Source: Desulfobacterales bacterium
Lineage (GTDB): Bacteria; Desulfobacterota; Desulfobacteria; Desulfobacterales; JAHDSC01
Direction: 5' to 3'
Assembly: GCA_018432925.1 (NCBI GenBank)
Contig: JAHDSC010000054.1
Span: forward strand, 1-45,331
DNA length: 45,331 nt
In this document: piece by piece, positions 2,204-14,760 of the stretch
How the letters are laid out: each line of letters begins with the position of its first letter
Numbering within the stretch: position 1 is the first letter of the stretch
Made by a program: the position numbers and the translations under genes
Notes under the pieces: model-generated
Seen by the model: the letters and a program-made list of their open reading frames with translations, nothing else
Database searches by the model: none
What the model was told of the DNA's origin: nothing

Positions 2204-3220
2204 TTATTGATCGAATTTCTCAAACAGGGATAATCCTATCGCTTGGGCGATTTTCTGTCCTCTTTTTGCCGATTGGCTGATGGTTGGCTGGGATAATTTC
2301 AACTCTTTGGACAGCTCGATGGTTGTCATCCCCAGCTCTCGCGTTGCCCAATAACACAGCAAGCTGCGCGCTTTTACATTTTTGGGGTACTTACCCGGTG
2401 TCAAGATTTCCTGCGGTTCAAGTCCAGACAGCTTTGTCACCCGTTTCACCAACCATTTGAAATCGCAGCCATCGGCTTCCAGGCGGTATTTTCGTTCCAG
2501 ATCCTCCCGGGCCTCTTTCAATACCGATTCAACAAACTGGCCGTCTCCTAGAATGCGTTCATCCCCTTTAATCCGCTCAAACCCCTTGCGCAAGGCTTTC
2601 ACCGCAGACCATCCGCCAACGCAACGCACAAGGCCCCCGCCCACCAAGTATGGTTTTCGACCTTCACAGATTCCCTTTGCCACATATTCGCGGTAATGCC
2701 GACGAGCAGACAAGCTCTTATTGGAATAAAACCTCAGAATATAATCCGTATCCTGCCCCGGTTGCTTGCTTTTTCCCATCATCACACTGTGACCCCCATA
2801 AGCATAGGTGTCCAAAGCCTTCAAATCCTCCACAAGCCTGGCGCGCAATGGATTCAAGTGGATGTAGCGCACCAGCTCCAACAAGTATAAATCCTCCTGA
2901 CACAAAATGGATTTGTAGCGATTCTGGAAGAGTTGACCATGTCGGCGGTGGCGATGATTGAAGCTGACGGCATATCCGGTCAATAGCCGCCGCATCACCG
3001 TAGCGATTGGCGTAGTGCCGGTTTTTAGCAACAGATGAGCGTGATTCGGGATCAAGGCCCACGCAAAACAGGGCGTGCCGGTTTCAATCAAGACGGCTCC
3101 CAGCCGTTCCAGAAAGTTGTTCCTGTCTTCATCGTCATAGAATATCTTTCGACGTTCAATGCCCCTGACGATAATATGATGCAGCGCTCCAGGAGCGTCT
3201 ATGCGGGCTTTCCGTGGCAT
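2204..3220 (-). CDS. rayT: REP-associated tyrosine transposase (RayT, Y1/HUH family) with C-terminal helix-turn-helix
   Basis: This 338-aa protein has the single-strand HUH transposase fold. IIVRGIERRKIF lies near the N-terminus, the metal-binding H60-A-H62 in LIPNHAHLL, and the presumed nucleophile Tyr119 in RYIHLNPLRARLV. These motifs define the TnpA-REP (RayT) branch of Y1 transposases, which cut and join hairpin-containing DNA. Residues after about 180 are additional to the core (about 150-180 aa). The C-terminus (about residues 270-330) resembles a DnaA-like or MerR-like helix-turn-helix, with GMTTIELSKELKLSQPTISQ, likely a DNA-binding extension. The gene appears intact. It is flanked by inverted GACGTCCCCTA ends and tandem repeats that are probable recognition sites. 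Confidence 0.92.
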   Translation of the reverse strand: MPRKARIDAPGALHHIIVRGIERRKIFYDDEDRNNFLERLGAVLIETGTPCFAWALIPNHAHLLLKTGTTPIATVMRRLLTGYAVSFNHRHRRHGQLFQNRYKSILCQEDLYLLELVRYIHLNPLRARLVEDLKALDTYAYGGHSVMMGKSKQPGQDTDYILRFYSNKSLSARRHYREYVAKGICEGRKPYLVGGGLVRCVGGWSAVKALRKGFERIKGDERILGDGQFVESVLKEAREDLERKYRLEADGCDFKWLVKRVTKLSGLEPQEILTPGKYPKNVKARSLLCYWATRELGMTTIELSKELKLSQPTISQSAKRGQKIAQAIGLSLFEKFDQ

Positions 3221-10397: not shown

Positions 10398-11165
10398 ATG
10401 CTGAATATCCAAAATTTAAAGTGTTATCATGGTCGAATCCAGGCAATTAAGGGAGTCGATCTGTTTATTGGAAAAGGTGAACTGGTTACGCTGGTCGGCG
10501 CCAATGGCTCCGGGAAAAGCACGTTGGTCCAGGCGGTCTGTGGATTACTCAATGAATGGAAAGGGGAAATCCGCTTCGAGAATGAACTGCTTGCCGGTCT
10601 GAAGCCTTCCTCAATCGTCAAACGCGGGATCAGCATGGTGCCGGAAGGGAGAATGATTTTTTCCACCTTGAGCGTTTTGGACAACCTGAAACTCGGCGCT
10701 TACACCCGGTACCGGAAAAAAAGAATGGCCGAAGCTGTCGAAAATGATCTTCAGATGGTTTTGGACCTATTCCCCGTACTTAAGGATCGGGCATCTCAAC
10801 CCGCGGGCACCCTTTCCGGCGGCGAGCAGCAAATGCTTGCCATTGGTCGGGCTCTGATGGCGCGTCCCAAACTGCTTGTGCTGGATGAACCATCCGTGGG
10901 ACTGGCACCGCTACTGGTTCGAAAGATATTATCCACCCTTGAACAGCTCCGAAATCAAGGACTGACAATTCTTCTGATCGAACAGAACGCTCACGCCGCC
11001 CTTGAAATCGCCGATCGCGGATATGTAATCGAAACCGGCCGTGTGGTTCTGGAAGGTGCCGCATCCGATCTGCTCAACGACGAGGAGTTGAAGAAAGTCT
11101 ATCTGGGTAAGGATTACTGCGAGTCATACCCGAAGAATTTCATCCCGCTCCGATGCTGCAATTAA
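10398..11165 (+). CDS. livF: ABC transporter ATP-binding protein LivF
   Basis: This is the second ATPase of the importer, about 255 aa from the ATG at 10398. That ATG is preferred because AGAAGG lies 6 bp upstream; another in-frame ATG at 10380 overlaps the livG stop. Motifs: Walker A GANGSGKS, signature TLSGGEQQMLAIGRAL, Walker B LLVLDEPSVGL, and LLIEQNAHAAL with its switch region. The typical LivF ending YLG is followed by about 17 extra residues rich in Cys and Pro. The TAA stop lies within the TTAA target duplication of the MITE that begins at 11166. Because the duplication preserves TTAA, the insertion did not alter the reading frame. Confidence 0.93.
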   Translation: MLNIQNLKCYHGRIQAIKGVDLFIGKGELVTLVGANGSGKSTLVQAVCGLLNEWKGEIRFENELLAGLKPSSIVKRGISMVPEGRMIFSTLSVLDNLKLGAYTRYRKKRMAEAVENDLQMVLDLFPVLKDRASQPAGTLSGGEQQMLAIGRALMARPKLLVLDEPSVGLAPLLVRKILSTLEQLRNQGLTILLIEQNAHAALEIADRGYVIETGRVVLEGAASDLLNDEELKKVYLGKDYCESYPKNFIPLRCCN

Positions 11166-11601: not shown

Positions 11602-11645
11602 AAAAAATAAAAACAGCCGATTCGGTTATTGAACCGATCCGGCTG
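11602..11645 (-). terminator. Intrinsic terminator of the three-gene exported-protein cluster
   Basis: On the minus strand CAGCCGGATCGGTT (11645-11632) pairs with AACCGAATCGGCTG (11627-11614) and is followed by TTTTTATTTTTT. The stop codon of the RPSAP-repeat gene (11626-11628) lies at the loop. Confidence 0.9.
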
Positions 11646-12051
11646 GAGGGAATGTCTGGTTCGGAGCAGAAGGTCTCACGCGCTGATCCGGAGCGGACGG
11701 TCTCATGGTCTGAGCTGGGGCCTTCGGCCTCATAGACTGAGCCGGCGCTGATGGTCTCAGTGACTGAACCGGGGCTGACGGCCGTGTCTGCTGGATTGAG
11801 GATGCGGGTTTATCTCCTCCGGGGCCTTCCCCATCGTTGATTTTCAGCATCTCGTTATTTTTCTGCCCCTCCCGAAACGCTCCATGCTTCCGTACCTGAT
11901 TCGTTATCGGGTTTACGCGTGTCTGAACCGCCTCTTCTTCCTCCTCCGCCTCACAGTATGCCGAGCCGCAAAACAAAAAAACCCCGGCAAAAAGGAACAA
12001 ACCACAAAGCATCAAGGCCATTAAGCGTTTGAAACGTCTCTGTTTTCTCAT
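11626..12051 (-). CDS. Small exported protein with five RPSAP-type repeats, function unknown
   Basis: I do not recognise a family. The likely start is the ATG at 12051, 141 codons, because GGAGGGG lies just upstream; an in-frame ATG at 12093 has no such site. Residues 1-35 are a basic stretch plus a hydrophobic signal segment (LMALMLCGLFLFAGVFLF, then a cleavage near SAYC). An acidic run AEEEEEA follows, then a linker, then a low-complexity proline-rich tail. The tail has five units of about nine residues: TRPSAPVQ, SLRPSAPAQ, SMRPKAPAQ, TMRPSAPDQ, RVRPSAPNQ. Such proline/arginine-rich tails often span or bind the cell wall; that is inference. It is the last gene of a cluster with two other exported proteins. 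Confidence 0.65.
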   Translation of the reverse strand: MRKQRRFKRLMALMLCGLFLFAGVFLFCGSAYCEAEEEEEAVQTRVNPITNQVRKHGAFREGQKNNEMLKINDGEGPGGDKPASSIQQTRPSAPVQSLRPSAPAQSMRPKAPAQTMRPSAPDQRVRPSAPNQTFPPAGSVQ

Positions 12052-12105
12052 ATCTCCCCTCCTCTTCCGGTATCCGGTTGTTATGTGCTTCATTACGTGC
12101 TTTCT

Positions 12106-13644
12106 TTACGGTTCAAAGATGTTCTTCAAACTCGGGTGCGAGACAATGATACGCGCTTTGCCGTGCATGTTTTTCCGTTCGAAAAAATTCACCGCTTCTC
12201 TTAAAGCCGAGGCATCGATCTCACAATCGATTGACACGTATCTTTCGTCTTTCAGGCAGGAAACGCCCTGTTCAAACCAGTTACCCGCCGATCCTTCTTC
12301 TCCCAGTTTCATAGTCGCCTTCCCCATGAGAAAGACCGCCGGGAACGATCCGTTTCTCTGCCGGTATATATCATAGTAATGAAGAGCCTCCCGGTACCGG
12401 CCGGCTCCCATGAGGGCATCGGCCAGGTTTTTCTGGCGAAAGTTCATGGGCGGATAGGCTTCGTAGGCAGCGCGGAAAAATTCAAGCGCCTCGTCAAGAT
12501 CCCCCCGGTCGATCAGGCATTGGCCCAGATCCGCCAGAGCGAAGGCGTACCGTTTGTCGTGGCGGTATGCCGTGCGGGCCAGATCAAAGGCACCCTCTCG
12601 GTCACCGGATGCCATCAGGGCAAAGGCCTGGTAGGTCATGAGGCATGGATCTTTCGGGTAGCGCTGCCGGAAACGCCGGGTAAAATCGATCGCCGCCGCG
12701 GTACGGTCGTTCCGGTAGTAAAGATCCGCCAGTCCGTGGACGAGCCAAAGTTCGCGAAATGGCTCCGATACGAACTTCGGTTTCTCGAGAATTTCAACGC
12801 AGTAGTCGGCGATCCATCGTCGTGCAACATTGAGAAATCCGCCATTGACCGAACAGGAGACAACCGCATCCCGGATGCGGTAATTTTGCTCCGCCACCCG
12901 GGTGAAAAAAACGCTCAATGCGCTGAGGATATCGCGGTCATACCAGTCGGCAAACGGCGGAAAAAAATCCGCGTCGATGCTCAAGATGACCGGCTCCTCG
13001 ATCCTCGGCAGATGCTCGATGCCGCATATGCTCAGGGGAAAACCGTCGTAGATTCCCTGGTAGCAGCCCTCATGCATGACAAAGGAATCGATGCTTTTCC
13101 GCGGAAAACCGTAGGCGGCCAGAAAGCCTTCCAGCCGATCCGTTGCGTCGATGTCACGGAAATAGGAAAACGGGATCACCCAGTAGACCCTGCGGATTAT
13201 GCCCAGCTTGCAGGCGGCATGGATAAACGACCCGGGGTGATAGAGGCCGTTTTCTCCGCCGGAATCGGCCGTCTCGAAAGACTTCCAGTCTTTCTTCCGT
13301 GCGATGCTTCGCAGTATCTCGATCTTCTCCGGCGAAACCCGGCGCATATCGTCATGAGCGTCAAAATTGATCAGCACCGCATTGCAGATACCTTGGCGGG
13401 CCCATCGCGGCAAGGCCTGGCTGTGGTCTTCCAGAAGGCCGACCCCATTGATCCGGTCCTTGCCCGGAATCTGCCGTTCTCCGGCATATACCGAAACATT
13501 CGCCACAATCAGCAGGCAGCAGAACAGCCCGATTACAAACCCGCGCGAACCGGACCGGAACCGGATAATCCTGCAAGATAACGCTCCATGGCGTATCATC
13601 GAACCCTGATCGAGTCTGCCTGGAATACCGGAACGTTTTCGCAC
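12106..13644 (-). CDS. Exported UPF0489 (arginase/deacetylase-like) protein with C-terminal TPR repeats
   Basis: This 512-aa protein has an N-terminal hydrophobic segment at about residues 35-54 (GFVIGLFCCLLIVANV), so it is exported or membrane-anchored. The first half carries the UPF0489 motifs: EDHSQAL (72-78), NFDAHDD (93-99) and ILSIDADFF (220-228). The paired Asp/His clusters resemble the metal-binding DAHxD and DxDxF motifs of the arginase/histone-deacetylase fold. The second half (about 300-490) consists of helical TPR-like units with ALADLGQCLIDRGDLDEALE and NLADALMGAGRYREALHYYD. The enzymatic activity of UPF0489 proteins is unknown. I used the GTG at 13644, 8 bp after the preceding stop; an ATG at 13599 is an alternative. 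It is in an operon with the CARDB-like gene upstream. Confidence 0.8.
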   Translation of the reverse strand: MRKRSGIPGRLDQGSMIRHGALSCRIIRFRSGSRGFVIGLFCCLLIVANVSVYAGERQIPGKDRINGVGLLEDHSQALPRWARQGICNAVLINFDAHDDMRRVSPEKIEILRSIARKKDWKSFETADSGGENGLYHPGSFIHAACKLGIIRRVYWVIPFSYFRDIDATDRLEGFLAAYGFPRKSIDSFVMHEGCYQGIYDGFPLSICGIEHLPRIEEPVILSIDADFFPPFADWYDRDILSALSVFFTRVAEQNYRIRDAVVSCSVNGGFLNVARRWIADYCVEILEKPKFVSEPFRELWLVHGLADLYYRNDRTAAAIDFTRRFRQRYPKDPCLMTYQAFALMASGDREGAFDLARTAYRHDKRYAFALADLGQCLIDRGDLDEALEFFRAAYEAYPPMNFRQKNLADALMGAGRYREALHYYDIYRQRNGSFPAVFLMGKATMKLGEEGSAGNWFEQGVSCLKDERYVSIDCEIDASALREAVNFFERKNMHGKARIIVSHPSLKNIFEP

Positions 13645-13652
13645 TCTTGCGC

Positions 13653-14543
13653 CTATGGCTTAAATGTCCTCGGCTTAAAACCCTCGGGCGGTCCGGCCGG
13701 TGCGCCAAGGGTGGCGACCTTGCCGTTGTTTGCCTTGTCCGCCTCTCTTATGCGGTTTCCGTAATCCACCACGGCGGTGATCTTTTCCGGGCCGGTGACT
13801 TTCAGATTGGAAACATAACGGATTGTTCCACCGGGTTTCTGAAGGTTTCGTTGCGGGTCGATCACTTTGATCGAGACGCCTCCCCACCGCTTTCCTTCGC
13901 GAAACAGCATGACCGATGCGCTCTCGGACGAAGTCCAGACCTGGCTCGGGACCTCCCCCGGACCGTTGTTTTTAATATCCACCATCACGAGGGAATCGCC
14001 GGTGAGGGCAAGATTCGTCACCGCCAGATCGCACTCGCCGTGCGCCTGTCCCTGGCCGCCCGTGGTTTGTCCGGCGTCTTCCTTGCCGGGATACTCAATC
14101 ACAAGCGTGCCACGCACGGGGATGTTCATAAAATTGTGCAGTTCGACCCGGAAACGCTCGCAATACCTTAACGATGGCGAGTCGACTGCTCCCAAAAGGA
14201 TATAGGTGCCCGGCCGGGAGAATTTTTTGTAACCGATTTTGCAACTGTCGCGATAATCTGCCTCGTCGGAATCTTTTTTATATTGTCTGATATAGGTTAC
14301 CACGTTGCCTTTATAACCGCTGGCCCCGAATTCATCGATGGTGATGGTTGCCTTGATGGGTCCCTCGCGTATGACCTGGATATCATAAAACAGGCTGTAT
14401 GGATTCTGGCCCGGGCCTTGATGTTTGGCCAGCTCAAGCTTGTGCACTTCGCGAGCGGCAAGCGCCTCGCCCGTGCAGAAGGTGGTGGTCAGCAGCACCG
14501 CCGTGAAAAGAATACCGAAACGCAATCGCCTCGATGAAATCAT
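13653..14543 (-). CDS. Exported protein with C-terminal CARDB-like domain
   Basis: This 296-aa protein is preceded by a near-perfect ribosome binding site, TAAGGAGGT, and a signal peptide (residues 1-29, ending EALAAREV). Residues about 30-155 form an all-beta N-terminal domain that I cannot name. From about 165, CDLAVTNLAL, MVDIKNNGPGEV, VSNLKVTGPEKITAVVDYGN and EADKANNGK match the pattern of a CARDB (cell-adhesion-related, Ig-like) domain, with its closing E-D--NN motif. Such domains mediate surface or extracellular protein interaction. It is the first gene of the three-gene minus-strand cluster (8 bp to the next gene), which suggests a common extracytoplasmic job. Confidence 0.75.
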   Translation of the reverse strand: MISSRRLRFGILFTAVLLTTTFCTGEALAAREVHKLELAKHQGPGQNPYSLFYDIQVIREGPIKATITIDEFGASGYKGNVVTYIRQYKKDSDEADYRDSCKIGYKKFSRPGTYILLGAVDSPSLRYCERFRVELHNFMNIPVRGTLVIEYPGKEDAGQTTGGQGQAHGECDLAVTNLALTGDSLVMVDIKNNGPGEVPSQVWTSSESASVMLFREGKRWGGVSIKVIDPQRNLQKPGGTIRYVSNLKVTGPEKITAVVDYGNRIREADKANNGKVATLGAPAGPPEGFKPRTFKP

Positions 14544-14684: not shown

Positions 14685-14760
14685 TGGTGGTCCCAACGGG
14701 GATCGAACCCGTGTTTCCGGCGTGAGAGGCCAGCGTCCTAGGCCGCTAGACGATGGGACC
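14685..14760 (-). tRNA. tRNA-Glu (anticodon CUC)
   Basis: This 76-nt cloverleaf reads on the minus strand. The acceptor GGTCCCA pairs with TGGGACC, followed by discriminator A and an encoded CCA. The D arm contains GTCTAG..AGGAC. The anticodon arm CTGGC-CTCTCAC-GCCGG gives anticodon CTC, which reads GAG (Glu). The T arm is ACGGG-TTCGATC-CCCGT. It has its own promoter and terminator. Confidence 0.97.

What the first reader, a model, noticed from the sequence alone, without database searches (positions are those of the whole stretch)
11626..14543. Three-gene cluster of exported proteins: RPSAP repeats, UPF0489-TPR, CARDB-like
All three have signal segments, are tightly spaced (8 and 54 bp), share one strong ribosome binding site at the front and one terminator at the end. 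The combination of a putative metal-dependent arginase-fold enzyme, an adhesion-type domain and a wall-spanning-type proline-rich peptide does not match a system known to me.
Basis: partly seen in the sequence, partly recalled or inferred. Interest (0 to 1): 0.6.

Follow-up and report, generated by a model that had tools for sequence, protein, structure and literature searches.

The report
Exported arginase-like enzyme with Arg-Pro-repeat partner
Two neighbouring genes encode an exported enzyme that looks like the rare 'peptide arginases', which turn arginine into ornithine inside a peptide chain, and a small exported protein made of arginine-proline repeats that could be its substrate; known peptide arginases act on small natural-product precursors, so an exported version would extend that chemistry to secreted proteins.

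Summary
The three minus-strand genes are real and probably one transcription unit, but only two of them belong together. Gene B (12106-13644) is an exported arginase-fold domain plus a C-terminal TPR domain. All six metal ligands of the pfam12640 peptide arginases are present. The best structural match to its model is the peptide arginase OspR (8BRP; Z 16.0, 2.8 A over 188 residues). Relatives with the same arginase-TPR layout but no signal peptide lie in radical-SAM/PqqD clusters of RiPP type. B is not a strict family member: it misses the PF12640 cut-off, lacks OspR's dimerisation insert, and has Asp for OspR's Glu11. Gene A encodes five intact 9-residue units xQxxRPxxP. Its only homologue found lies directly after B's closest homologue in a second genome, with ten units; all six Arg codons are used for the Arg of Arg-Pro. 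Gene C (CARDB-like) is absent there and recurs elsewhere without B. Best reading: B is an extracytoplasmic peptide-arginase-like enzyme that converts the Arg of A's repeats to ornithine. Fold and metal site are well supported; substrate and chemistry are inferred. I found no report of an exported or TPR-fused peptide arginase.

The parts
12106..13644 (-). Gene B: exported arginase-fold + TPR protein, 512 aa (GTG start; alternative ATG at 13599)
   Evidence: ORF; homologue 53% identical in L022/L023; AlphaFold2 model pLDDT 85.8, pTM 0.80
12772..13455 (-). Arginase-like domain of B, residues 64-291
   Evidence: VIA-align: 8BRP OspR Z 16.0, rmsd 2.8, 188 residues; profile of six B domains against PDB: 8BRP E=1.5e-8
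13423..13431 (-). Metal motif 1, E72-D73-H74 (EDHSQAL; EEH(N/H)EAF in peptide arginases)
   Evidence: motif from PMC10028609
13348..13362 (-). Metal motif 2, D95-A-H97-D-D99 (DXHXD)
12967..12981 (-). Metal motif 3, S-I-D224-A-D226 (LDIDLDYF)
12109..12765 (-). C-terminal TPR superhelix of B, residues 294-512
   Evidence: Pfam TPR_16 1e-12 and others; TPR structures fill the fold matches for 294-512
11626..12051 (-). Gene A: exported Arg-Pro repeat protein, 141 aa from the Met with a strong ribosome site (ORF opens at 12093)
   Evidence: start choice; homologue L023:7623-8177, 45% identical
11662..11796 (-). Five intact 9-aa units xQxxRPxxP in A; a sixth, decayed unit follows to 11629
13653..14543 (-). 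Gene C: exported CARDB-like protein, 296 aa; operon neighbour in this genome only
   Evidence: CARDB 18.7 bits, below the cut-off; paralogue at G000:C46
14549..14556 (-). Ribosome site AAGGAGGT of C
12056..12063 (-). Ribosome site AGGAGGGG of A
11614..11645 (-). Intrinsic terminator stem after A, overlapping the end of the gene; U-tract below 11614

Best explanation
B is an extracytoplasmic, TPR-equipped enzyme of peptide-arginase type. It is exported through its N-terminal signal segment, binds two divalent metals (by analogy Mn2+) at H74, D95, H97, D99, D224 and D226, and hydrolyses the guanidinium group of arginines inside a polypeptide to give ornithine and urea. The TPR superhelix most likely holds the extended proline-rich substrate. 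The likely substrate is the co-encoded exported protein A, whose intact 9-residue units xQxxRPxxP each carry an Arg-Pro; A would become a poly-ornithine repeat protein outside the cytoplasm. Shown here: the genes, the conserved B-A pair, the fold match, the metal ligands, the TPRs and protein-level conservation of the repeats. Inferred: catalysis (about 0.75), peptidyl rather than free Arg as substrate (about 0.65), A as that substrate (about 0.45), and where the modified protein ends up and what it is for (unknown).
For: (1) Fold: the B model (pLDDT 85.8) has OspR peptide arginase as its top VIA-align row, Z 16.0, 2.8 A, 188 residues. (2) Sequence: a profile of six B domains matches 8BRP at E=1.5e-8, with all three metal motifs in register and a further weak block that puts a Ser near OspR Ser264. 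(3) All six ligands are kept in the window protein and in G059, G315, G721, G423 and G363. (4) Two relatives of the same arginase-TPR layout, without signal peptide, lie between B12-radical-SAM, PqqD and radical-SAM genes, the context of RiPP maturation; one passes the PF12640 cut-off (31.6 against 27 bits). The exported and cytoplasmic groups are homologous (hhalign probability 99.8, E=2e-27). (5) A follows B directly in both genomes that carry the close B clade (tree support 100/99). In 291 genomes of the order, A and B occur in the same two and nowhere else, setting aside low-complexity A hits. (6) The Arg of the 15 intact Arg-Pro units uses all six Arg codons, and only 41-45% of same-residue codons are identical between repeats, so the arrays are old and held at protein level.
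Against: The window protein itself has no PF12640 hit and only E=0.025 to the NCBIfam peptide-arginase model. The exported group alone reaches 8BRP only at E=0.14. OspR's proposed guanidinium-stabilising Glu11 is Asp in the window and Thr in G059. OspR's 65-residue dimerisation insert is absent. Exported relatives G315 and G721 keep the ligands but have no A-like gene nearby, so A is not the substrate of the whole exported group. The A-B pair rests on two genomes. No peptide arginase acting outside the cytoplasm turned up in the held papers.
Confidence: 0.45

Rival explanations
1. B is a catalytic extracytoplasmic peptide arginase, but its substrate is another surface protein; A is a proline-rich structural or scaffold partner held by the TPRs.
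For: Exported relatives with intact ligands (G315, G721) have no A-like gene but lie convergent to giant CxxxxCH/CxxCH multihaem cytochromes with 27 CxxCH motifs; TPRs commonly bind other proteins.
Against: In the window clade the only neighbour shared by both genomes is A, and its Arg-Pro is kept through both arrays while other positions of the unit vary.
Confidence: 0.25
2. B is an exported ureohydrolase for free arginine, agmatine or another small guanidino compound, and its pairing with A is not enzyme and substrate.
For: The arginase fold and metal site also fit small-molecule ureohydrolases; the exported group alone matches 8BRP only weakly (E=0.14).
Against: The best fold match is the peptide arginase, the homologous cytoplasmic group lies in RiPP-type clusters, and the motif context (E-x-H-[SN]-x-A and LxIDxDFF) is that of pfam12640 rather than GGDHS/SxDxDxxDP (PMC10028609).
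Confidence: 0.12
3. B is a catalytically dead or binding-only protein: an exported receptor or scaffold that kept the arginase fold, with A as its ligand.
For: A related exported clade has lost the ligands (G312, G548, G508, G603, G620), so this fold can persist without the metal site; Glu11 of OspR is not kept.
Against: All six ligands are kept in window, G059, G315 and G721 at 33-53% identity to the window protein, which is hard to explain without metal binding.
Confidence: 0.12
4. The three genes are accidental neighbours with unrelated roles.
For: C does not co-occur with B elsewhere; the A-B pair is known from two genomes only.
Against: A and B are adjacent, in the same order and orientation, in two genomes of different families with 45-53% protein identity, and A is found nowhere else in 291 genomes.
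Confidence: 0.06

Closest known systems
OspR-type peptide arginases (pfam12640/UPF0489: OspR, FlmR, OhkR, BipC, PbsE)
   Same: Alpha/beta/alpha arginase fold (8BRP best match, Z 16.0); three metal motifs with six ligands in the same order; Ser near the OspR Ser264 position; arginine-bearing partner encoded next door.
   Different: Exported; C-terminal TPR domain; no dimerisation insert between motif 3 and the SV-GG segment (about 39 residues where OspR has 97); Asp or Thr for Glu11; no RiPP maturases nearby; partner is a secreted repeat protein, not a leader-core precursor.
Cytoplasmic arginase-TPR proteins in radical-SAM/PqqD clusters (L044, L045; uncharacterised)
   Same: Same domain order, homologous along the arginase domain, ligands kept.
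   Different: No signal segment; sit between B12-radical SAM and another radical SAM gene with PqqD proteins; about 20% identity to B.
Conventional arginases (PF00491), including the enteropeptin-type peptide arginase
   Same: Same fold class and binuclear metal site in principle.
   Different: Motifs GGDHS/DAHXD/SXDXDXXDP are not matched as a set; no PF00491 hit in Pfam.
Proline-rich periplasmic or wall-spanning repeat proteins (general type, from own knowledge)
   Same: Low-complexity Pro-rich exported repeat protein with an acidic N-terminal stretch.
   Different: No anchor or partner domain seen in A; Arg-Pro in every intact unit; genetically tied to an arginase-fold enzyme.

Membership tests
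pfam12640 peptide arginases | Six Mn-binding residues in three motifs (xxH, DXHXD, DxD) | tested here: met
   H74, D95, H97, D99, D224, D226 in window, G059, G315, G721, G423, G363; aligned to 8BRP motifs
pfam12640 peptide arginases | Arginase three-layer fold as in OspR | tested here: met
   AlphaFold2 model against 8BRP: Z 16.0, rmsd 2.8, 188 aligned
pfam12640 peptide arginases | Score above the Pfam PF12640 gathering cut-off | tested here: not met
   No hit for the window protein; relative L045 passes with 31.6 against 27 bits. B is therefore called peptide-arginase-like, not a member
pfam12640 peptide arginases | Glu directly before the motif-1 His (OspR Glu11) | tested here: not met
   Asp in window, Thr in G059, Asn in L044/L045; the preceding Glu (E72) is invariant in all 14 sequences
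pfam12640 peptide arginases | Dimerisation insert (OspR 170-234) | tested here: not met
   Only 6 profile positions (between 179 and 186) separate motif 3 from the next aligned block, against 64 residues (between 172 and 237) in 8BRP; the second block is a weak match
pfam12640 peptide arginases | Encoded in a RiPP cluster with precursor and other maturases | tested here: not met
   Neighbours are a CARDB-like gene, A, tRNA-Glu, an MltB-like lytic transglycosylase gene and liv-type ABC genes; met only by cytoplasmic relatives L044/L045
pfam12640 peptide arginases | Arg-to-Orn conversion in a peptide | not testable with these tools
   Needs an enzyme assay and mass spectrometry
CARDB (PF07705), gene C | Score above the Pfam cut-off | tested here: not met
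   18.7 against 22.7 bits; paralogue L051:7054-8403 has 35 bits; AlphaFold2 model of C is poor, pLDDT 46
C-B-A as one conserved three-gene system | All three genes co-occur in other genomes | tested here: not met
   A-B conserved in G059; C absent there and found without B in G030, G019 and G089

The most novel reading that the evidence does not exclude
The first peptide arginase that works outside the cytoplasm and on a secreted repeat protein rather than on a RiPP precursor: a dedicated two-gene module in which an exported TPR-fused arginase-type enzyme turns the Arg of every Arg-Pro unit of its partner into ornithine, making a poly-ornithine surface or periplasmic protein.
Probability: 0.4. 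Interest if true: 0.75.

Novelty: new variant of a known kind. Interest (0 to 1): 0.55.

Why it matters
Peptide arginases were recognised only recently. One 2025 paper counts seven shown to be active, on four precursor types, all in RiPP pathways (PMC12703449). An exported, TPR-fused form with a repetitive Arg-Pro partner would mean that ornithine can be installed in secreted proteins. It would also offer a compact enzyme-substrate pair for making poly-ornithine proteins, and show that the fold has spread in Desulfobacterales and related groups into exported branches, some of which have lost the metal site. It also gives a concrete test for two so far unannotated protein families.

Tried and rejected
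- Full-length B as query: hits only generic TPRs beyond itself; dropped in favour of the N-terminal domain.
- PF12640 search of the own genome: no hit, and no control genome rang either, so uninformative by itself.
- B in viral contigs and plasmids: none. PHROGs and PADLOC scans: only marginal E-values (0.004-0.009), in B confined to the TPR region, so no phage or defence link.
- Weak A hits in G047, G165, G289, G011 and G030: read and rejected as low-complexity repeats of other composition or chance frames.
- Homologue of the G059 outer-membrane protein in the window genome: none, so that neighbour is not part of the shared module.
- Foldseek alone listed only TPR-containing structures in its top 50; the arginase domain appeared with VIA-align.
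- Structure of C: pLDDT 46, not used.
- Laying the whole genome in the Python box was not available.

Full report
WHAT IS THERE. Three minus-strand ORFs lie between a liv-type ABC transporter operon (plus strand, ending at 11165) and a tRNA-Glu gene (14685-14760). In transcription order they are C (14543-13653, CARDB-like), B (13644-12106) and A (12093-11626). Each opens with a hydrophobic signal-like segment (read by eye; no signal-peptide predictor was available). C has the ribosome site AAGGAGGT. A has its own site, AGGAGGGG, before the Met at 12051, so A is most likely 141 aa long. B has no clear site and either a GTG start at 13644 or an ATG start at 13599. An intrinsic terminator (-19.5 kcal/mol, z -3.7) closes A. 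The set looks like one transcription unit, though transcription itself was not tested.

GENE B. Pfam sees only TPRs in B. The first hint was a weak NCBIfam match to the FlmR/OhkR peptide arginase model (E=0.025). Searching with residues 55-300 found one close homologue in 291 genomes of the order (53-56% identity), in a Desulfobacterales MAG (JAGXKN010000069.1). A two-sequence profile found ten more relatives in the phylum; further ones came from the family of G315. A profile of six of these domains has OspR (8BRP, 'Peptide arginase') as its top PDB match, E=1.5e-8, with all three metal motifs in register. The AlphaFold2 model of B (pLDDT 85.8, pTM 0.80) matches 8BRP over residues 64-291 at Z 16.0 and 2.8 A over 188 residues, the first row of the list; residues 294-512 match TPR proteins. 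The six ligands named for OspR in PMC10028609 correspond to H74, D95, H97, D99, D224 and D226. They are intact in the window, G059, G315, G721, G423 and G363; one is lost in G707 and in G452; most are lost in a separate exported clade.

RELATIVES AND CONTEXT. In G423 and G363 the same arginase-TPR layout has no signal segment and sits between PqqD proteins, a B12-radical SAM enzyme and another radical SAM enzyme. The best NCBIfam match of the B12 enzyme, below cut-off, is the RiPP maturation C-methyltransferase model. This is RiPP-type company; the G363 protein passes the PF12640 cut-off and the G423 one is just below it. The exported and the cytoplasmic groups are clearly homologous (hhalign probability 99.8, E=2e-27). 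The nearest exported sister group (G315, G721, G707) has twin-arginine-like signals ending in a lipobox-like LPGC. G315 and G721 lie convergent to multihaem cytochromes of about 2100-2200 aa with 27 CxxCH motifs. These have no A-like gene nearby.

GENE A. The window protein has five intact units xQxxRPxxP; the G059 homologue has ten. Q, RP and P are constant by the definition of the unit used in the count, but the positions between them vary, and the decayed sixth window unit shows what loss looks like. The Arg is written with all six codons, and identical residues share the same codon only 41-45% of the time, so the arrays are not recent copies; they are held at protein level. The N-terminal part is conserved too (EEEEE..QTR.NP and IN.G.GPGG..PA). 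A second contig of G059 (C16) overlaps the end of A and shows that A is the last gene of the set there as well. Weak A hits in five other genomes are low-complexity artefacts.

GENE C. No homologue in G059. A paralogue lies elsewhere in the same genome (27-29% identity in matched segments), and relatives occur in G030, G019 and G089, which have no B. C is a general exported CARDB-like protein that sits in this operon here; its role in the A-B module is unproven.

CO-OCCURRENCE. In the sampled order (291 genomes) A and B are in the same two genomes and in no other. Without regard to phylogeny the chance of that is 1 in 42,195 (two of 291 drawn twice; my arithmetic). The two genomes are in different families, the proteins are 45-53% identical, and order and orientation are kept. 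In a class-wide sample of 389 genomes only these two carry a strong B. The distribution is sparse and patchy, which suggests transfer or frequent loss.

MECHANISM. I commit to the peptide-arginase reading: export, two-metal site, hydrolysis of Arg to Orn plus urea, TPR groove as holder of the proline-rich chain, A as substrate. Shown: genes, pair, fold, ligands, TPRs, repeat conservation. Inferred: catalysis, peptide specificity, substrate identity, final place and use of the product.

MEMBERSHIP. B looks like a peptide arginase on the evidence of fold and ligands, but I do not file it as a pfam12640 member: it fails the Pfam cut-off, lacks Glu11 and the dimerisation insert, and is not in a RiPP cluster. 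The invariant E72, one residue before the Glu11 position, might take over the guanidinium contact (speculation). I found no report of an exported or TPR-fused peptide arginase in the held library, which lacks most subscription papers.

VERDICT. A real, small, conserved enzyme-partner module with a clear and cheap test; a new variant of a known kind. Interest 0.55, limited by two genomes and an unproven substrate.

Noticed in passing
L041:9379-15978, L056:138-6428, L048:9089-15991, L043:2946-6995: Very large CxxxxCH/CxxCH multihaem cytochromes (TIGR01904; 18-27 CxxCH motifs) lie next to or near exported B relatives in four genomes, convergent in G315, G721 and G508. A recurring neighbourhood with no explanation so far.
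   Followed up: partly
L044:458-4780 and L045:5663-10488: Candidate RiPP-type clusters in one genus of the phylum: PqqD + B12-radical SAM + cytoplasmic arginase-TPR + PqqD + radical SAM. No precursor peptide was looked for.
   Followed up: partly
L043, L046 (two tandem copies), L047, L048, L049, L050: A clade of exported B relatives that has lost most metal ligands (for example LVLLSNNPF for the DXHXD segment), partly duplicated in tandem: an arginase fold apparently reused without metal.
   Followed up: partly
L023:4486-6125: In G059 the B-A pair is preceded by a TPR/beta-barrel outer-membrane protein (weak BBP2_2 and Slam-TPR matches) and a 92-aa exported protein, with no homologue of the barrel protein in the window genome; it could be an export route for A there.
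   Followed up: partly
L070:520-1068: A tyrosine-recombinase-like gene lies just beyond A in G059, and a tRNA-Glu lies just beyond C in the window; a possible hint at mobility of the module.
   Followed up: no
L051:7054-9390 (G000:C46): Paralogue of C with a longer CARDB-like arrangement, next to another exported gene on the opposite strand.
   Followed up: partly
window 2204-3220: IS200-like (Y1) transposase-domain protein.
   Followed up: no
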